Positions 22,645 to 36,699 of a stretch of DNA of 37,099 nucleotides are shown in pieces. A program made the translations under genes and the position numbers. This stretch comes from Fusobacteriota bacterium (GTDB lineage: Bacteria > Fusobacteriota > Fusobacteriia > JAPLKR01): NCBI GenBank assembly GCA_026387965.1, contig JAPLKR010000060.1, forward strand, positions 1-37,099, given 5' to 3'. The notes beneath the pieces are model-generated. The model did not search any database and was not told the origin of the DNA. It saw only the letters and a program-made list of their open reading frames with translations. Positions within the stretch are counted from its first letter, which is position 1; every line of letters starts with the position of its first letter.

Positions 22645-25155
22645 ATGGGTAAGATTAATACATATATATCATTGTTTAGCAGTGCAGGTGTTGGCTGCTA
22701 CGGATTTAAACAAGAAAATTTTGAATGTATTGCGACAAATGAAATAATTTCCCGAAGAATTGAGATTCAGAAACATAATAATAAATGTAAATATGATAGC
22801 GGTTATATTTGTGGAGATATTACTTCCGAAGTAATAAAATCAAAATTATTTAATGAGATTGAATTTTGGAAAAAAAATCACTCACTTAAACGAGTTGATG
22901 TTATTGTTGCTACTCCTCCATGTCAAGGAATGTCAGTTGCAAACCATAAAAAAGCTGCTGATGAAATCGTGAGAAATTCTTTAGTGGTTGAATCGATAAA
23001 ACTTATTAAAATAATAAAACCCAAATTTTTTATTTTTGAAAATGTTTCTGCTTTTATGAAGTCAGTTTGTACTGATATGGACGGAAAGGATAAAAAAATA
23101 AGAGAAGCAATTGACTGCAACTTGGGTTCGCTTTATTCTTATCATTCGCAAATTATAAATTTTAAAAATTACGGAGGTTGCTCAAGTAGGCAAAGAACAA
23201 TTGTGATAGGTGTATCAAAAGATTTAGCTGATGACATATCTCCATTTGAGTTGTATCCTGATTTCGTTAATGAATTATCATTAAGGGAAGTCATTGGAAA
23301 ATGTAAAAAAATGAAAAAATTTGGTGAGATTGACGAAGATGATATTTTCCATTTTTTTAGACCTTATCCGGAGCATATGAGAAACTGGATATGTGATTTA
23401 AAAGAGGGACAATCTGCATTTCAGAATGAAGAAGAGAAAAACAAACCTCATCAAATTATTAATGATAAAATTGTTTTGAACCAACAAAAAAATGGAGACA
23501 AATATAGAAGACAATTATGGGATAAAGTTGGACCTTGCATTCATACCAGAAATGATCAATTAGCGAGCCAAAACACAATACATCCTCAAGATGATAGAGT
23601 ATTTAGCATACGAGAGTTAATGCTAATGATGACGATTCCTGATGAATTTAAATGGGTGCAGGAAGATATCACAGGTATTAATTCGTTAGATCATGATAAT
23701 AAATTGAAATTTCTAAAGAAAAATGAAATCAATATTCGACAATCTATTGGGGAAGCCGTGCCAACTAAGATATTTAGAATAATTGCAAAAAAAATAAAAG
23801 AACATTTAAATTATACGTTTATGAGTAATTCTGCAATTAAGAAGTTAGTTCTAGAAAATGATTTTTCGGATGTGAATGTTTTGACTAAATATATTAAAAA
23901 TAATCCTAAAAATCTTTCGATTTCTACTTTAGGTAGGGTAGCAGAATTATCGAATACCTTCAGAACAGATAATGCAGCTTTCTTTACAAATAAGTCGTTA
24001 ATAACAGAAATATTGAAAGAAATCCCTGATTCGAATAAAGACGAAATTAGAATTTTAGAGCCATCAGTGGGTGTTGGTAATTTTGTTCCATTGATATTTA
24101 AAAAATTTGAAAATAAAAAAGTGAAGTTGGACTTACTAGATATTGATGATAAAAGTATTTTAGTATTAAAAACAATATTAGAAGTAATTGGGATACCTAA
24201 AAATTTCGAAGTTAATTTTATTACAAGTGATTTTTTGCTTTATGAGTTCGTAGAAAAATATGATTATATTATTGGTAATCCTCCTTTTAATAAATTAAGT
24301 TCAAATCATCAATATTTGAGTATTTATAGGCAAAATGCAATGAATAAAGAGTCGAGAAATATTTGCTCATTTTTTTTAGATAAAGCAATCAATTATAGTC
24401 GATATGTAGCCTTTGTTTTTCCTAAATTTATATTAAGCACACCTGAATTTAAAAGTTCAAGAGAATACTTGTCGAACAAAGCGATTGAATGTATAATAGA
24501 TTTTGGAGAAAAAGGATTTCAAGGGGTATTGGTTGAAACAATAGCGTTATTTGTAAATACTTTAGTCAGTGCTAAAAATACTAAGGTTATTTCGTTTGTA
24601 AATGATTTTACAGAGGTAAAAAAACAGTCTTACATTTGTGATAATAAATTTCCATATTGGCTAATTTATAGGAATAAAGATTTTGATTTAGTTTGTGAAA
24701 AATTGAATTTTGGGGAGTTTAATGTTTTTAGAGATAGACAAATAACAAATGCTGTACTCAAAAAAAATGGAGATATTAGAGTTATAAAATCTAGAAATAT
24801 TAATGATACAGGGACCGAAATATTAAATATTGATTCGTATGACACATACATTGATTACACTGATGTGAAAAATTTTTCAGTGTATCAATTTTTTCAAAAG
24901 GATGATGTATATCTTACACCAAATATGACATATAATCCACGGGTAATAAAAAAAACCAAAAATATATTAGTAAATGGTTCAGTAGCAATATTAATTCCAA
25001 AAAATAATATTGAGTTAACAGAAAACCAATTGGCATATTTTTCTACACCTGAATATAGACACTTTTATAAAATCGCAAGAAATTATCAGATTCGCTCTCT
25101 TAATATTGATAGCTGTTCAGTTTACTTTTTTGGCGTTTTAAAAGACTTTAATTAA
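22645..25155 (+). CDS. Fused DNA methyltransferase: N-terminal C5-cytosine MTase, C-terminal N6-adenine MTase
   Basis: 836-aa modification enzyme with two catalytic domains. Residues 1-395 form a C5-cytosine MTase: SLFSSAGVGCYGF (motif I, diverged from DLFxGxGG), TPPCQGMS near 89-96 with the catalytic Cys, FENVSAFM near 131, RQRTIVIG near 183, and IRQSIGEAVPTKIFRII near 366. Residues about 440-836 form an N6-adenine MTase: ILEPSVGVGNFVP near 470, IIGNPPFN near 541-548 (NPPF, gamma class), and a C-terminal target-recognition-like region (VYLTPNMTYNPR, NGSVAILIP). The C-terminal half resembles the Alw26I/Eco31I/Esp3I adenine MTases, systems with asymmetric sites where one strand carries m5C and the other m6A. 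AAAGGAG site before the ATG. The endonuclease gene follows 19 bases later. Base composition is much more AT-rich than the neighbours, consistent with transfer. Confidence 0.9.
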   Translation: MGKINTYISLFSSAGVGCYGFKQENFECIATNEIISRRIEIQKHNNKCKYDSGYICGDITSEVIKSKLFNEIEFWKKNHSLKRVDVIVATPPCQGMSVANHKKAADEIVRNSLVVESIKLIKIIKPKFFIFENVSAFMKSVCTDMDGKDKKIREAIDCNLGSLYSYHSQIINFKNYGGCSSRQRTIVIGVSKDLADDISPFELYPDFVNELSLREVIGKCKKMKKFGEIDEDDIFHFFRPYPEHMRNWICDLKEGQSAFQNEEEKNKPHQIINDKIVLNQQKNGDKYRRQLWDKVGPCIHTRNDQLASQNTIHPQDDRVFSIRELMLMMTIPDEFKWVQEDITGINSLDHDNKLKFLKKNEINIRQSIGEAVPTKIFRIIAKKIKEHLNYTFMSNSAIKKLVLENDFSDVNVLTKYIKNNPKNLSISTLGRVAELSNTFRTDNAAFFTNKSLITEILKEIPDSNKDEIRILEPSVGVGNFVPLIFKKFENKKVKLDLLDIDDKSILVLKTILEVIGIPKNFEVNFITSDFLLYEFVEKYDYIIGNPPFNKLSSNHQYLSIYRQNAMNKESRNICSFFLDKAINYSRYVAFVFPKFILSTPEFKSSREYLSNKAIECIIDFGEKGFQGVLVETIALFVNTLVSAKNTKVISFVNDFTEVKKQSYICDNKFPYWLIYRNKDFDLVCEKLNFGEFNVFRDRQITNAVLKKNGDIRVIKSRNINDTGTEILNIDSYDTYIDYTDVKNFSVYQFFQKDDVYLTPNMTYNPRVIKKTKNILVNGSVAILIPKNNIELTENQLAYFSTPEYRHFYKIARNYQIRSLNIDSCSVYFFGVLKDFN

Positions 25156-25174: not shown

Positions 25175-26059
25175 ATGTTAACAAAAAATGATGTTGAACA
25201 GTTTTGTTCTCGCAATAATTATGATTTGCGTAGAAGTGGAAATGGGAGATGGATTGATCAGAAATGTGCGGCAGATGTTATTACGGTAATTGCAGATTGT
25301 ATTTATAATTATAATTTAGAACACCCAAATGCTAGTTTTACATCAAAAGATATTTGGCATTATAAATATGCAATAGAGAATATTGAAGCAATATTTAAAA
25401 AAGCTGAAGTTGAAAGTAGTGAAGCTAGAAACGAATATGATAAATTTTTTCAGCAACCGATGGAAATGCTTGCAAATGCAAAGGTTCTAAGTAAAGCTAA
25501 AATAGGAAAAACAAATCATTATAGCATTATAAATAACGAAGTTTTAGAATATATTGCATTAAGAGAAAAAAACTCATTATTATTTTTAAGAATATATATT
25601 GAAAAGGTTTTAAGAGATAGTGGAATTTGGGAATATTTTAATAATTTTTTATTGGTGCCAAGTAAAAGAACGTATAATATAGTAAAAGAAAAATATTTTC
25701 AGTTTATAATTGAAAATACTAAAATAAATGGTGTTACGGAATGTAACAGAATATTTATTAAAGTGCTTAATCCACTTGCTTATTTTATGAATGTACAAGG
25801 AACTGAACGTGGAAGAATTTCAAAACAGAGAATTACTTATAATATGCTTATGTACAATCGTGATAATTTCAGAGATGTGTATGCTGATAAACCAAAAGGA
25901 ATTACCAGAAAAGAATATGTTACAAGTCGTCATATTGAAATGAATGAGGCGTATTATAAATATCAATCCGTAAAGGCAAAAAGATTTTTACGAATTTTTA
26001 ATGATCAAAATAGAAATGGTAAGACTGAATATTTGGATGGTGTGCATACTCAAGATTGA
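25175..26059 (+). CDS. Type II restriction endonuclease, N-terminal part (ends at in-frame TGA)
   Basis: 294-aa ORF following the fused methyltransferase, with a good GGAGG site. The start region NNYDLRRSGNGRWIDQKCAAD resembles the opening of HNH-type restriction enzymes (x-GRW/YxDQKxxxD). A segment near residues 88-130 (FQQPMEMLANAKVLSKAKIG...HYSIINNEVLEYI) reads like a winged-helix fold used for site recognition. The ORF stops at TGA 26057-26059, just before the nuclease core. The same frame continues without another stop through 26395, so the gene appears to be a ~406-codon ORF with one interruption. Trp (TGG) at the TGA position would fit, as in ...TQDWAIHMHHIFPE. On its own this part lacks any catalytic motif. 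Confidence 0.75.
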   Translation: MLTKNDVEQFCSRNNYDLRRSGNGRWIDQKCAADVITVIADCIYNYNLEHPNASFTSKDIWHYKYAIENIEAIFKKAEVESSEARNEYDKFFQQPMEMLANAKVLSKAKIGKTNHYSIINNEVLEYIALREKNSLLFLRIYIEKVLRDSGIWEYFNNFLLVPSKRTYNIVKEKYFQFIIENTKINGVTECNRIFIKVLNPLAYFMNVQGTERGRISKQRITYNMLMYNRDNFRDVYADKPKGITRKEYVTSRHIEMNEAYYKYQSVKAKRFLRIFNDQNRNGKTEYLDGVHTQD

Positions 26060-26068
26060 GCGATACAT

Positions 26069-26395
26069 ATGCATCATATTTTTCCTGAAGCTGACTATCC
26101 AGAAATATGTTATTTTTTAGAAAATATTATTGCGTTAACGCCGACTCAGCATCTTGGTTATGCTCACCCATATGGAAGAACACAAGAAATAGATGAGCAA
26201 TATCAGCATTTATTATTATTAGCAAAAGCTGATAGAATACAAGAAAATTTGGTAGCAGCAGTTGAAGACATATATGAATTTTCCAAATTTTTATATGTGT
26301 TAAATGTTGGGTTTGATGATGATAGTGTTATGGAAATATCAGATATGGATTTTCAAAGTGTTGTTAATAAAATCAATGTTCACTATGCTGCTTAA
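26069..26395 (+). CDS. HNH nuclease domain, C-terminal part of the restriction endonuclease
   Basis: 108-aa ORF in the same frame as the preceding one, nine bases after its TGA. MHHIFPE (H of the HNH), ENIIALTPTQHLGYAHP (N and final H) form an HNH/beta-beta-alpha-metal active site. The ATG at 26069 could be used by re-initiation after the TGA, with a weak GAG upstream, giving a split nuclease. Otherwise the domain is not translated unless the TGA is read through. Eco31I is a type IIS enzyme that I recall as having a single HNH site, which fits the methyltransferase resemblance, although this protein is shorter than I expect for Eco31I. Confidence 0.7.
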   Translation: MHHIFPEADYPEICYFLENIIALTPTQHLGYAHPYGRTQEIDEQYQHLLLLAKADRIQENLVAAVEDIYEFSKFLYVLNVGFDDDSVMEISDMDFQSVVNKINVHYAA

Positions 26396-31691: not shown

Positions 31692-33005
31692 ATGGTGTGG
31701 AAATTCAAAGGCGGCGTACATCCAGCAGATAAAAAAGAGTTTACACAAGATATGGAAATAGAAACTCAAGAGCCTCCTACACGGCTCTATTTTCCACTTC
31801 TTCAACACATTGGAAGTGAACTGACGCCGCTTGTCAAAATAGGCGCCAGAGTAAAAATAGGACAAAAATTGGCCGAGTGCGAGAGGGGGCTTGCCACTCC
31901 GATACACTCAAGTGTTTCGGGGTATGTAAGAAACATTTCAAGACAAGTGTTTCCGCTTAATGGTGTGGTAGAAACCATTGAAATTGAAAATGATTTCAAA
32001 GAAGAGTGGATAGAGCTGGAAAAATTTCCTCATTGGTATGAGATATCTCGAGAAAAATTAATTGAAATAATCAGAGAGAAAGGAATTGTGGGAAAAGGAG
32101 GAGCAACGTTTCCAACGTATGCAAAACTTTCAGTTCCATCTTCAGCGCGTATAGAAACACTTATTATTAATGGTGCGGAGTGTGAACCCTACCTAACGTC
32201 AGATTATCGAGTTATGATGGAGTATACCCAGAAAGTGATTGGGGGAGTGAAGATTCTAGGGTATATTTTAGGAGTGAAAAAGATTATATTTGGAATTGAA
32301 AAGAATAAACCGCATGCGATAGAACTGCTAAGAAATGAGCTCCACGATTATGATGATATTGAGATTATAGCCCTGCCAACACGCTACCCCCAAGGAGGCG
32401 AAAAGCAGCTTATCAAAGCCTTGACGGGAAAAGAACTCTCGCCAGGAAAGCTTCCTTACGAACTTGGGATAGTGGTTCAGAATATAACCACGGCTAAATA
32501 TGTTTTTGAAGGCGTTGTAGAGGGGATACCGATGATAGATACGGTGATTACGCTTTCAGGTGAAGGCTATAATCGACCAACTAATGTATTGGCAAGATTA
32601 GGTTCACGTTTTAAAGATGTTGTTAAAATGGTAGAAATTGACCACAATAGAACAGAGAAATTGATTATGGGTGGACCTATGATGGGCATTGCTCAGTATA
32701 GTGTGGATTTGCCAATTATAAAGGGGACAACGGGCATTCTTGCACTTTCTAAATATGAACTTAATAAAAAGCGAACAAAAAGTTGTATTAGTTGTGGACG
32801 TTGCATTAAAGCGTGTCCAATGAATCTTCATCCCTTAGAATTTGTGAAATTGGTATTAAATGAGGAGTTTGAATCGCTTGAAAATTTTCATATTATGAAG
32901 TGTATCGATTGTGGGTGTTGTACGTATATTTGCCCATCTAATCGACCGCTCGTTGAGACAATAAAACTAGGTAAATCTAAAATACGAGAGTTAAATAGAA
33001 AGTAG
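31692..33005 (+). CDS. rnfC: Rnf complex subunit RnfC (NADH/ferredoxin side)
   Basis: 437-aa peripheral subunit of the ferredoxin:NAD+ oxidoreductase at the cytoplasmic face. The GGVHPADKK N-terminus, IVGKGGATFPTYAKL near residues 135-149 (NADH/FMN-binding fold shared with NuoF) and NGAECEPYLTSDYRVM near 160-175 are diagnostic. Two [4Fe-4S] motifs, CISCGRCIKACP near 365 and CIDCGCCTYICP near 405, complete it. First gene of rnfCDGEAB, the order seen in clostridial, Acetobacterium and fusobacterial clusters. Confidence 0.96.
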   Translation: MVWKFKGGVHPADKKEFTQDMEIETQEPPTRLYFPLLQHIGSELTPLVKIGARVKIGQKLAECERGLATPIHSSVSGYVRNISRQVFPLNGVVETIEIENDFKEEWIELEKFPHWYEISREKLIEIIREKGIVGKGGATFPTYAKLSVPSSARIETLIINGAECEPYLTSDYRVMMEYTQKVIGGVKILGYILGVKKIIFGIEKNKPHAIELLRNELHDYDDIEIIALPTRYPQGGEKQLIKALTGKELSPGKLPYELGIVVQNITTAKYVFEGVVEGIPMIDTVITLSGEGYNRPTNVLARLGSRFKDVVKMVEIDHNRTEKLIMGGPMMGIAQYSVDLPIIKGTTGILALSKYELNKKRTKSCISCGRCIKACPMNLHPLEFVKLVLNEEFESLENFHIMKCIDCGCCTYICPSNRPLVETIKLGKSKIRELNRK

Positions 33006-33012
33006 GGGGGGT

Positions 33013-33963
33013 ATGTTAAAAAAATTACGTGTATCAAGTTCGCCACACATTCGCTCAAATGAGACAGTCACGACTATTATGCGAGATGTTCTGATTGCTT
33101 TAGTACCATCAATGGTTATGGCGATAGTATTTTTTAGAGTTCAAGCAGTAATTTTGCTGTTAACGTGTATGGCTGCGTCACTGATTATTGAATGGGGCGT
33201 ACACATCACATTTAAACGAAAAATTGATTTTACGGATACGAGTCCTCTCGTTACAGGAATACTTCTTGCTCTTATTGTACCCTCTAACTTGCCTTTATGG
33301 ATGGCAATTATAGGGGTATTTGTGGCAATATTTTTTGGAAAAATGGTATTTGGTGGACTTGGACATAATATCTTCAATCCAGCTTTAGTGGGAAGATGTT
33401 TTCTATTGGCATCATGGCCTGTCGCCATGACGAATTGGGCGAGTTTTGATGGTGTTTCGGGGGCAACTGTGCTTAACACCATTAAAATGCATGGAAATAG
33501 TGCAGCAACGGCGCTTTTCGGAACTACCTCAGGTGAATATCTTCATATGTTTTTAGGGTCAAGATTAGGCTCTCTTGGCGAGACCTCTACACTAGCGCTA
33601 CTAATTGGAGCCCTCTATCTTTTCCTAAGAAGAACCATTAGTTGGCATACACCTGCGAGCATGATAGGAACGGTATTTCTTCTTTCCTGGTGTGTTGGAA
33701 GAGATCCTATTCTTTCTATAATGTCTGGTGGTCTTATTTTGGGCGCTTTTTTTATGGCAACAGATATGGTAACAACTCCAAAAACAGGCATGGGTAAAAT
33801 TATTTTCGGCGTTGGTGCGGGTGCATTAGTTGTGTGGATTAGAGTTAAAGGAGGGTACCCTGAAGGGGTTGCGTACGCTATTTTGCTTATGAATGCTGTG
33901 ACTCCTCTTATTGATAAAATGACAAAACCTAAACCGTTTGGATACGGAGGTAAAAATGCGTAA
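33013..33963 (+). CDS. rnfD: Rnf complex membrane subunit RnfD
   Basis: 316-aa integral membrane subunit related to NqrB, with about eight to ten membrane helices and covalently bound FMN in characterised homologues. Family stretches: SSPHIRSNETVTTIMRDVLIAL at the start, the GLGHNIFNPALVGRCFLLASWP segment near 115-136, and SGATVLNTIK near 150, whose Thr sits in the S/G-A-T motif expected to carry FMN. Also GAFFMATDMVTTPKTGMGKI near 243. Start after AGGGGGGG, seven bases past rnfC. Ends eight bases inside rnfG. Confidence 0.95.
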   Translation: MLKKLRVSSSPHIRSNETVTTIMRDVLIALVPSMVMAIVFFRVQAVILLLTCMAASLIIEWGVHITFKRKIDFTDTSPLVTGILLALIVPSNLPLWMAIIGVFVAIFFGKMVFGGLGHNIFNPALVGRCFLLASWPVAMTNWASFDGVSGATVLNTIKMHGNSAATALFGTTSGEYLHMFLGSRLGSLGETSTLALLIGALYLFLRRTISWHTPASMIGTVFLLSWCVGRDPILSIMSGGLILGAFFMATDMVTTPKTGMGKIIFGVGAGALVVWIRVKGGYPEGVAYAILLMNAVTPLIDKMTKPKPFGYGGKNA

Positions 33964-34525
33964 AATTTTGATTTCTGCCATATTTCTTTGTGTTATTGCG
34001 GGTTTTTCTGCTTTTGTTTTAGTAAATGTGAATTCGATGACCCAAAGTAAAATAGAGGCTCAAAAAGAAGGAGCAATTGAGGAGGCTCAAAAAAACGTAC
34101 TCTCTCAAGCGGTAACATTTAATGAAAATAAATCTATTACTGTGCCGCCCATCAAAGCTATATCTGGCGGGGTAGATAAGTATCAATTTATTCCAGGGTA
34201 TAGTAGTGGTGGTGCATTGGTAGGCTATGTAGTCAACGTGTCCTCCACGGGATACTCTTCAGATATTCAGTTCACCATGGGAATTAGTAGTGATGGGAGT
34301 GTTACTGGCATTCAAATCACGAGTCAAAAAGAAACTCCAGGATTGGGTGATAAAATTTCTGGAAAACTTTGGGAAGGGCATTGGGCTGGAATAACGGCTC
34401 AGACCCCATTTAACAAATCACTAGATGCCTTTGCGGGATCGACTATTTCACCGGAAGCAGTATATACCGGCATGATGAATGCCCTTGAAACTTTCGATAG
34501 TATCAAAGGGGGTGGAAATGTCTAG
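33956..34525 (+). CDS. rnfG: Rnf complex subunit RnfG (covalent flavin)
   Basis: 189-aa protein with one N-terminal membrane helix and an extracytoplasmic FMN-binding domain. Near the C-terminus DAFAGSTISPEAVYTGMM contains the Thr expected to hold FMN by phosphoester (the family's S/T-GATxS motif), and TSQKETPGLGDKIS near 122-135 is typical. I use ATG 33956 with GGAGGT six bases upstream; an in-frame TTG at 33938 is less likely. Overlaps rnfD by eight bases and rnfE by eight. Confidence 0.93.
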   Translation: MRKILISAIFLCVIAGFSAFVLVNVNSMTQSKIEAQKEGAIEEAQKNVLSQAVTFNENKSITVPPIKAISGGVDKYQFIPGYSSGGALVGYVVNVSSTGYSSDIQFTMGISSDGSVTGIQITSQKETPGLGDKISGKLWEGHWAGITAQTPFNKSLDAFAGSTISPEAVYTGMMNALETFDSIKGGGNV

Positions 34526-35126
34526 AAAAATTAGCTTCTCCACACAGATTTTGAATGGCATTTTTAAAGAAAATCCCACATTTGTTTTGGTTATTGGACT
34601 ATGCCCAACGTTAGCAGTGACGACAAGCGCTATTAATGGGCTAGGCATGGGAGTTGCCACACTACTTGTTTTAGTATCTTCTAATTTTTTTATATCGATT
34701 ATTAGTAAAATTACACCTAGTCAGGTTAGAATTCCTGTGTATGTTATTGTGATTTCAACGATTGTTACGGTTATTGGAATGTTGATGCAAGCGTATTTGC
34801 CAACTCTCTATTTAGCTCTTGGAATTTTTGTTCCCCTTATTGTGGTAAACTGTATTATTTTAGCTCGAGCAGAGATGTTTGCCGCGAGAAATGGTCCCAT
34901 CGCATCACTTGTTGATGGTCTTGGGATTGGACTTGGATTTACGATAGCACTCACACTGCTAGGAAGTATTAGGGAGATTTTAGGGAGTGGAACCTGGTTT
35001 AATCAACCTCTGTTTTCTTCAAATTATCAAGGGGTATTAATCATGATATTGCCGCCAGGTGCATTTTTAACCATTGGGGTGTTGATGGCAATCATTCAAA
35101 AGTTCACAAAAAAAGGAGGTGAATGA
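34518..35126 (+). CDS. rnfE: Rnf complex membrane subunit RnfE
   Basis: 202-aa polytopic subunit, paralogous to RnfA, with six predicted helices. ENPTFVLVIGLCPTLAVTTS near residues 15-34 contains the conserved Cys-Pro and half-helix region (shared iron-sulfur site with RnfA in recent structures, from memory). FVPLIVVNCIILARAEMFAA near 106-125 holds the matching N-C motif. I chose ATG 34518, which overlaps the rnfG stop and gives the standard MSRKISFSTQILNGIFKENP start. Stop is TGA. Confidence 0.95.
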   Translation: MSRKISFSTQILNGIFKENPTFVLVIGLCPTLAVTTSAINGLGMGVATLLVLVSSNFFISIISKITPSQVRIPVYVIVISTIVTVIGMLMQAYLPTLYLALGIFVPLIVVNCIILARAEMFAARNGPIASLVDGLGIGLGFTIALTLLGSIREILGSGTWFNQPLFSSNYQGVLIMILPPGAFLTIGVLMAIIQKFTKKGGE

Positions 35127-35710
35127 TGAATATCACTCTACTCTTTGGCATAGTCATTACCTCGATTTTCATAAATAATATTATTTTTGCTCAGTTTTTA
35201 GGGTTATGTCCCTTTTTTGGTGTTACAAAAAAGATGAGTTCAGCTCTCGGAATGGGGATGGCAGTGACATTTGTACTGACTCTTTCTTCAGCCATAACGT
35301 GGGTGGTAAATTTTTACTTACTGATTCCATTTAAACTTGAATATTTACAAACGGTTGTATTTATATTAGTTATAGCATCTCTTGTTCAGTTTGTAGAGCT
35401 TTTAATTCAAAAAAGCGTGCCAGCGCTGTACCAATCATTAGGTGTATTTTTGCCGCTGATTACAACTAACTGTGCAGTCCTCGGTATAGCTTTAATCAAC
35501 ATAAGTAAATCTTATAATTTTATTGAATCTACAGTGAATGGGTTTGCCACTGCGATAGGATTTACGATAGCACTTTTATTAATGTCCGGTATTCGAGAAA
35601 AACTCGAGCATGCTGATATTCCTAGGTCATTTAAAGGTTTGCCGATTACATTTATTACTGCAGGACTTCTTGCCATTGCCTTTATGGGTTTTAGTGGCAT
35701 GAAATTATAG
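35126..35710 (+). CDS. rnfA: Rnf complex membrane subunit RnfA
   Basis: 194-aa polytopic subunit with six helices. INNIIFAQFLGLCPFFGVTKKM near residues 17-38 and the FLPLITTNCAVLGIALIN segment near 109-126 match RnfA and mirror RnfE. The ribosome-binding site AAAGGAGGT is six bases from ATG 35126 and only three from ATG 35123, so I prefer the second. Either start overlaps the rnfE TGA, indicating coupling. Confidence 0.95.
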   Translation: MNITLLFGIVITSIFINNIIFAQFLGLCPFFGVTKKMSSALGMGMAVTFVLTLSSAITWVVNFYLLIPFKLEYLQTVVFILVIASLVQFVELLIQKSVPALYQSLGVFLPLITTNCAVLGIALINISKSYNFIESTVNGFATAIGFTIALLLMSGIREKLEHADIPRSFKGLPITFITAGLLAIAFMGFSGMKL

Positions 35711-35718
35711 GGGGAGAA

Positions 35719-36699
35719 ATGTTGATAAGTGTTTGTATTATTGCGGCACTCGGGCTCATATTTGGTGCATTTTTAGGTTATGCGGCAAAAAAATTTGGTG
35801 TAGAAAAAGACGAGCGCATAGAAAAAATTATTGCCATTCTTCCAGGTATAAATTGCGGGAGCTGTAACTGCGTAGGATGTAGTGATTATGCTGAAAAAGT
35901 GGTTTCTGGCAGTGTAAAAAGTAATTTGTGTACGCCAGGTGGCGAGAGCGTTGCTTTTGCAATTTCTGAAGTTATGGGGGTGCAGGAAATTGAAATTCGT
36001 GATACAATGGTGGCTAGAGTACGTTGCCAAGGTAATCATTATAAGACAATTAAAAAGTATGAACTTGATACAGTTATAAAAAGTTGTTCAGAGGCCAGAC
36101 TCTATTTTCATGGAGACAAAAGTTGCATTTATGGATGTTTGGGATATGGAGATTGCGTTAGCCATTGTCCGTTTGGCGCAATAGTGATCACGCCACAAGG
36201 GATTGCTGAAGTAAAAGATAATTTATGTGTGGGCTGTGGAAAATGTGTAAAAACTTGTCCTAAACAGATTATTAAGTTACAAAATATGGAGATGTGCTAT
36301 ACTGTTTTATGTTCATCAAAAGAGCATGCTCATCACGCAAAAATCGCATGTGATATTGCTTGCATTGCGTGTGGTAAATGTGCGGAGATATGTCCAAATT
36401 CTGCTATTTTAATGGAACATAATTTGGCGAAAATAGATTATGAAAAATGCAATAGTTGTGGGCTGTGTGCACTTAAATGTCCCACAAACGCCATTTATAG
36501 TGAAATAAAAGATTGTGACTTTGTAGAAATAGTTGAGGAAAAATGTATTGGGTGTACAAAATGCAAAAATGTCTGCCCATTCAATGCTATTTCCGGGGAG
36601 TTAAAGCACGTACACAAAGTATCTGAAAAAATGTGTGTTGGGTGTGGGTTTTGCGAAAAATCTTGCCCTACGCAAGCCATTGTAAGAAAAAACAAATAG
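35719..36699 (+). CDS. rnfB: Rnf complex ferredoxin-like subunit RnfB, cluster-rich form
   Basis: 326-aa subunit with one N-terminal membrane helix that accepts electrons from ferredoxin. The first Cys group C-GSC-N-C-VGC (residues 46-54) plus a later Cys near 74 is the RnfB-type [4Fe-4S] site. Six ferredoxin-like motifs follow: CIYGCLGYGDCVSHCP, then CVGCGKCVKTCP, CIACGKCAEICP, CNSCGLCALKCP, CIGCTKCKNVCP and CVGCGFCEKSCP. That allows up to seven [4Fe-4S] clusters, against three in E. coli-type RsxB. Long RnfB versions are known from Acetobacterium. Last gene of the rnf set. Confidence 0.95.
   Translation: MLISVCIIAALGLIFGAFLGYAAKKFGVEKDERIEKIIAILPGINCGSCNCVGCSDYAEKVVSGSVKSNLCTPGGESVAFAISEVMGVQEIEIRDTMVARVRCQGNHYKTIKKYELDTVIKSCSEARLYFHGDKSCIYGCLGYGDCVSHCPFGAIVITPQGIAEVKDNLCVGCGKCVKTCPKQIIKLQNMEMCYTVLCSSKEHAHHAKIACDIACIACGKCAEICPNSAILMEHNLAKIDYEKCNSCGLCALKCPTNAIYSEIKDCDFVEIVEEKCIGCTKCKNVCPFNAISGELKHVHKVSEKMCVGCGFCEKSCPTQAIVRKNK

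What the first reader, a model, noticed from the sequence alone, without database searches (positions are those of the whole stretch)
25175..26395. Restriction endonuclease split by a single in-frame TGA just before its HNH motif
The 294-aa and 108-aa ORFs are in the same frame and separated only by TGA (26057-26059) and three sense codons. The nuclease motif MHHIFPE...ENIIALTP...HLGYAHP lies wholly downstream. Trp at the TGA would give a natural TQDWAIHMHHIF. TGA is a normal stop elsewhere in the window. Options: a nonsense mutation leaving an active methyltransferase with a dead nuclease; low-level TGA read-through limiting nuclease dose; or re-initiation at ATG 26069 making a two-chain enzyme.
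Basis: partly seen in the sequence, partly recalled or inferred. Interest (0 to 1): 0.75.

Follow-up and report, generated by a model that had tools for sequence, protein, structure and literature searches.

The report
Restriction enzyme gene with premature stop
A bacterial restriction-enzyme gene of a known family (HpyAV/Hin4II-like) is cut by one stop codon just before its DNA-cutting domain while its partner DNA-marking enzyme is intact, which most likely means the cutter was recently lost by ordinary mutation; this is a common fate for such genes.

Summary
At 25175-26395 one restriction-endonuclease gene is interrupted by a single in-frame TGA (26057-26059); both halves match consecutive parts of one Type II REase model. 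The system has the layout of the published HpyAV/Hin4II Type IIS family: an upstream fused C5-cytosine/N6-adenine methyltransferase (22645-25155, intact), then an HNH nuclease with HpyAV's catalytic His-His/Asn/His spacing. The predicted target is CCTTC, by homology only.

None of 40 aligned homologues has Trp at this codon (K, L, H, P, Q, R, N, E, M), and all are single ORFs. The genome has RF2 and no UCA-anticodon tRNA among 35; window Trp codons are TGG (81 TGG, 0 in-frame TGA in 29 ORFs). Re-initiation at ATG 26069 is poorly supported: no Shine-Dalgarno, start inside the first HNH strand, loss of invariant Ala296.

The segment after the stop shows no decay, so the stop is very recent, an assembly error, or leaky. 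Best reading: a recent nonsense mutation leaving an intact methyltransferase with a dead nuclease. Broken endonucleases of this family occur elsewhere (H. pylori G27, published; genome G728 here). Ordinary; interest low.

The parts
22645..25155 (+). Intact fused methyltransferase, 836 aa: N-terminal C5-cytosine MTase plus C-terminal Eco57I-type N6-adenine MTase
   Evidence: Pfam DNA_methylase 7-385 and Eco57I 524-623; PADLOC PDLC03277 (823 positions) 5-833, E 8.5e-272, PDLC03370 (387 positions) and PDLC03382 (445 positions) on its two halves
25175..26056 (+). N-terminal 294 codons of the HpyAV-like restriction endonuclease; strong Shine-Dalgarno
   Evidence: PDLC03488 positions 4-283, E 4e-86; SD duplex -9.5 kcal/mol
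26057..26059 (+). Premature TGA at codon 295, in the linker just before the HNH domain
   Evidence: 0 of 40 homologues has Trp or a stop in this column; model: coil before strand 298-301
26060..26395 (+). Downstream part of the same gene, with the complete HNH catalytic residues (H300, H301, N317, H326)
   Evidence: ORF 26069-26395 matches PDLC03488 positions 296-403, E 1.2e-29; catalytic residues invariant in 41 sequences
26069..26071 (+).
   Evidence: SD duplex -2.2 kcal/mol, the same as random ATGs (median -2.3); 18 of 40 homologues have ATG here

Best explanation
A horizontally acquired Type IIS restriction-modification system of the HpyAV/Hin4II family. Its endonuclease gene has recently taken a nonsense mutation at a variable linker codon just before the HNH nuclease domain. 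The truncated 294-aa product keeps the N-terminal part (presumed DNA recognition; inferred) but has no catalytic residues, so restriction is lost or reduced to trace leakage. The intact fused C5/N6A methyltransferase probably goes on marking its site (CCTTC/GAAGG by homology; inferred) as an orphan. Shown: the stop, gene unity, family architecture, intact methyltransferase frame, no Trp in homologues. Inferred: loss of activity, specificity, continued methylation.
For: Both halves hit one REase model consecutively. All 40 aligned homologues, plus 5 on plasmid or phage records, are single uninterrupted reading frames. The codon column is K, L, H, P, Q, R, N, E or M, never Trp. TGA is a stop here: RF2 gene over cut-off, 35 tRNAs with one tRNA-Trp (CCA) and no UCA anticodon, 81 TGG and 0 in-frame TGA in 29 ORFs. 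The methyltransferase is full length and mostly 57-64% identical to intact homologues where these are held complete. Precedents for a broken nuclease in this family: HpyGORF49P of H. pylori G27 has a deletion that puts a stop within the HNH site (PMC2816704); genome G728 has a frameshifted, deleted endonuclease with the adjoining methyltransferase part intact.
Against: The segment after the stop has not decayed: its terminal branch is shorter than that of the N-terminal part (0.143 against 0.469 substitutions per site; whole-tree ratio 0.83), all catalytic residues are kept, and second codon positions differ far less than third. So the stop must be very recent, or the segment is still used. 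No reads or second strain are available to show that the TGA is real.
Confidence: 0.78

Rival explanations
1. The TGA is a sequencing or assembly error, or a minority variant fixed in a composite assembly; the real gene is intact and the system is active.
For: A single base explains it; nothing else in the gene is damaged and the downstream part is under full constraint. The assembly is a 141-contig draft.
Against: Isolated substitution errors are rare in consensus assemblies (general knowledge), and the other identified window genes show no comparable breaks.
Confidence: 0.13
2. Leaky or programmed read-through of the TGA gives a little full-length nuclease and limits its dose.
For: Downstream constraint is preserved. 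The codon lies in a variable linker, so almost any inserted residue might be tolerated. Basal near-cognate reading of UGA by tRNA-Trp is general knowledge.
Against: No homologue has Trp, Cys or a stop there; no suppressor tRNA; no unusual RNA structure downstream (z +1.16) or around the stop (z -0.46); only one genome carries it.
Confidence: 0.06
3. Two-chain enzyme: the 294-aa recognition chain plus a 108-aa HNH chain re-initiated at ATG 26069.
For: The ATG is only 9 nt after the TGA, in frame, and the 108-aa ORF holds the full HNH residues.
Against: SD energy -2.2 kcal/mol equals random ATGs while most window genes score -5.5 to -12.9. The start lies inside HNH strand 298-301 and drops A296, invariant in 41 of 41. 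No naturally split homologue found. The ATG is an older conserved Met codon present in 18 homologues.
Confidence: 0.03

Closest known systems
HpyAV R-M system of Helicobacter pylori (R: HP0053, 419 aa; M: HP0054, 823 aa; CCTTC 6/5)
   Same: M then R on one strand; M is a C5/N6A fusion of similar length (836 aa here); HNH catalytic spacing identical (H294/H295/N311/H320 against H300/H301/N317/H326)
   Different: The endonuclease here is stopped at codon 295, before the HNH motif; specificity untested
Hin4II R-M system of Haemophilus influenzae (R 418 aa; separate M1 387 aa and M2 445 aa)
   Same: Same REase and MTase families by the published comparison; PADLOC models of 387 and 445 positions match the two MTase halves here
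   Different: MTase halves are separate genes in Hin4II, fused here
HpyGORF49P of H. pylori G27
   Same: Same family, methyltransferase listed at full length, nuclease stopped within the HNH site
   Different: There a deletion and frameshift; here a single in-frame nonsense codon

Membership tests
HpyAV/Hin4II-like Type IIS R-M | Methyltransferase(s) of C5-cytosine plus N6-adenine type, often fused (about 820 aa) | tested here: met
   Pfam DNA_methylase and Eco57I in one 836-aa protein; PDLC03277 E 8.5e-272 over nearly its full length
HpyAV/Hin4II-like Type IIS R-M | Endonuclease of about 420 aa in this family, downstream of M on the same strand | tested here: met
   Joined frame is 406 codons and matches PDLC03488 4-403; M-R order is the same in nearly all homologous loci where M is held
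HpyAV/Hin4II-like Type IIS R-M | HNH catalytic residues with HpyAV spacing HH-x15-N-x8-H | tested here: met
   H300 H301 N317 H326, invariant in 41 sequences; HpyAV H294 H295 N311 H320 (PMC2816704)
HpyAV/Hin4II-like Type IIS R-M | Direct sequence similarity to HpyAV itself | not tested
HpyAV/Hin4II-like Type IIS R-M | Cleavage at CCTTC(6/5) with transition metals | not testable with these tools
   Needs the purified enzyme
HpyAV/Hin4II-like Type IIS R-M | Intact, uninterrupted endonuclease gene | tested here: not met
   TGA at codon 295; so this is a broken member by descent, not a proven active system
TGA recoding (Trp or selenocysteine) | Homologues carry Trp, or Cys/Sec, at the TGA position | tested here: not met
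   0 of 40
TGA recoding (Trp or selenocysteine) | Suppressor tRNA or absence of RF2 | tested here: not met
   RF2 present; no UCA anticodon among 35 tRNAs
Split (two-subunit) endonuclease | Second chain with its own translation start, and split homologues | tested here: not met
   No SD; no naturally split homologue found

The most novel reading that the evidence does not exclude
The TGA is maintained by selection: low-level read-through supplies a trace dose of active nuclease against a full dose of methyltransferase, which would explain why the segment after the stop shows no relaxation.
Probability: 0.05. Interest if true: 0.6.

Novelty: new member of a known kind. Interest (0 to 1): 0.15.

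Why it matters
It documents another loss of the nuclease arm of a mobile R-M system with the methyltransferase kept, a usual route to an orphan methyltransferase. For annotation: the two ORFs should be recorded as one interrupted HpyAV-like endonuclease gene, and the host should not be credited with CCTTC restriction without a test.

Tried and rejected
Trp read-through (no homologue has Trp). Selenocysteine (no Cys or Sec in the column; no notable structure downstream of the TGA). Genetic-code change (RF2 present, TGG-only Trp, no UCA anticodon). Re-initiation (no SD, start inside the HNH strand). Old pseudogene (no excess change after the stop). Sister strains: genus and order hold only this genome, and 98 genomes of the phylum gave one 45% homologue; an exact-pattern scan of viral contigs over the stop gave nothing. 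Solved structures: no sequence hit with the protein or the profile and no Foldseek hit with E <= 0.001. Promoter and terminator scan: no better than shuffles.

Full report
Observation. The frame from 25175 to 26395 contains exactly one internal stop, TGA at 26057-26059, between a 294-aa and a 108-aa ORF; the ATG of the second lies three codons after the stop. This is not chance: both halves match consecutive stretches (4-283 and 296-403) of the same 430-position PADLOC Type II REase model, and the joined frame scores E 2e-119. Pfam and NCBIfam have no model for the endonuclease.

What it is. The gene upstream (22645-25155) is an intact 836-aa fusion of a C5-cytosine and an N6-adenine methyltransferase. 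Published work on HpyAV (PMC2816704) describes this architecture: M.HpyAV (823 aa) is a C5/N6A fusion, followed on the same strand by an HNH endonuclease of 419 aa that cuts CCTTC(6/5), with catalytic H294, H295, N311 and H320. The joined frame here has H300, H301, N317 and H326, the same spacing, invariant in 41 aligned sequences. The 387- and 445-position PADLOC models that match the two methyltransferase halves have the lengths of M1.Hin4II and M2.Hin4II in that paper. I did not have HpyAV's own sequence to align, so membership rests on architecture, lengths, motif spacing and these models. The R-M block is about 26-30% G+C against about 31-40% in its flanks, and homologues sit in bins labelled Clostridia, Bacilli, Bacteroidales, Alphaproteobacteria and Helicobacteraceae, and in plasmid and phage-type records, as expected for a mobile system.

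The stop. In 40 aligned homologues the codon encodes K (15), L (7), H (5), P (4), Q, R, N, E (2 each) or M (1), never Trp. The nearest branch in the tree, L009, has Arg. All 40 are uninterrupted. TGA is a real stop in this genome: prfB scores over its cut-off; 35 tRNA genes include one tRNA-Trp with anticodon CCA and none with UCA; 29 window ORFs use 81 TGG and no in-frame TGA. The stop falls in a variable linker; the AlphaFold2 model (mean pLDDT 87.8) puts it just ahead of strand 298-301, which with strand 318-321 and helix 323-330 fits the beta-beta-alpha HNH element.

Re-initiation. ATG 26069 has a Shine-Dalgarno duplex energy of -2.2 kcal/mol, equal to random ATGs in the window (median -2.3); the endonuclease's own start has -9.5. 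A chain started there would begin inside strand 1 and lack A296, invariant in all sequences. The ATG is an inherited codon (18 of 40 homologues), not a new start.

Age of the stop. Against its closest relatives the segment after the stop is 14-31% different at the protein level and the segment before it 32-40%; after the stop, third codon positions differ at 42-78% and second positions at 8-17%. On a fixed tree the terminal branch is 0.143 after the stop and 0.469 before it; the whole-tree ratio is 0.83. There is no sign of relaxed selection, so the stop is very recent, or an assembly error, or the segment is still made at some level. With a single genome held in its order these cannot be separated here.

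How common. Among loci found here, G728 has a deletion plus frameshift in the endonuclease while the methyltransferase part held (residues 327-834) is intact, and G928 keeps only a C-terminal remnant with no methyltransferase within the 1.5 kb held upstream; G1422 is cut by a contig end and G639 lies in two pieces on two contigs. HpyGORF49P of H. pylori G27 is a published case. Loss of the nuclease with the methyltransferase kept is therefore a recurring event in this family.

Verdict. A broken member of a known family. The most likely explanation is a recent nonsense mutation that silenced restriction, with methylation probably continuing. The remaining uncertainty is whether the base is real and whether trace full-length enzyme is made by leakage.

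Noticed in passing
L058:1501-2721 (- strand): Homologue whose HNH part is close to its neighbours (terminal branch 0.072) but whose N-terminal part is very divergent (0.638): looks like a recombinant with a swapped recognition region, perhaps a new specificity.
   Followed up: no
L031, L032 (Acinetobacter plasmids), L027: Same R-M family with the methyltransferase as two separate pieces, Hin4II-like, instead of the fusion.
   Followed up: partly
L033 (Psychrobacter plasmid pA18P2): Endonuclease and methyltransferase genes on opposite strands with other genes between them, unlike the usual M-R order.
   Followed up: no
L054/L056 (genome G728): Independent inactivation of the endonuclease by deletion and frameshift beside a methyltransferase that is intact as far as held.
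   Followed up: yes
window 1-37099: The host genome is the only one held for its genus and order (phylum of 98 held genomes); the window also carries an Rnf-type electron-transport gene cluster (31692-36699).
   Followed up: no
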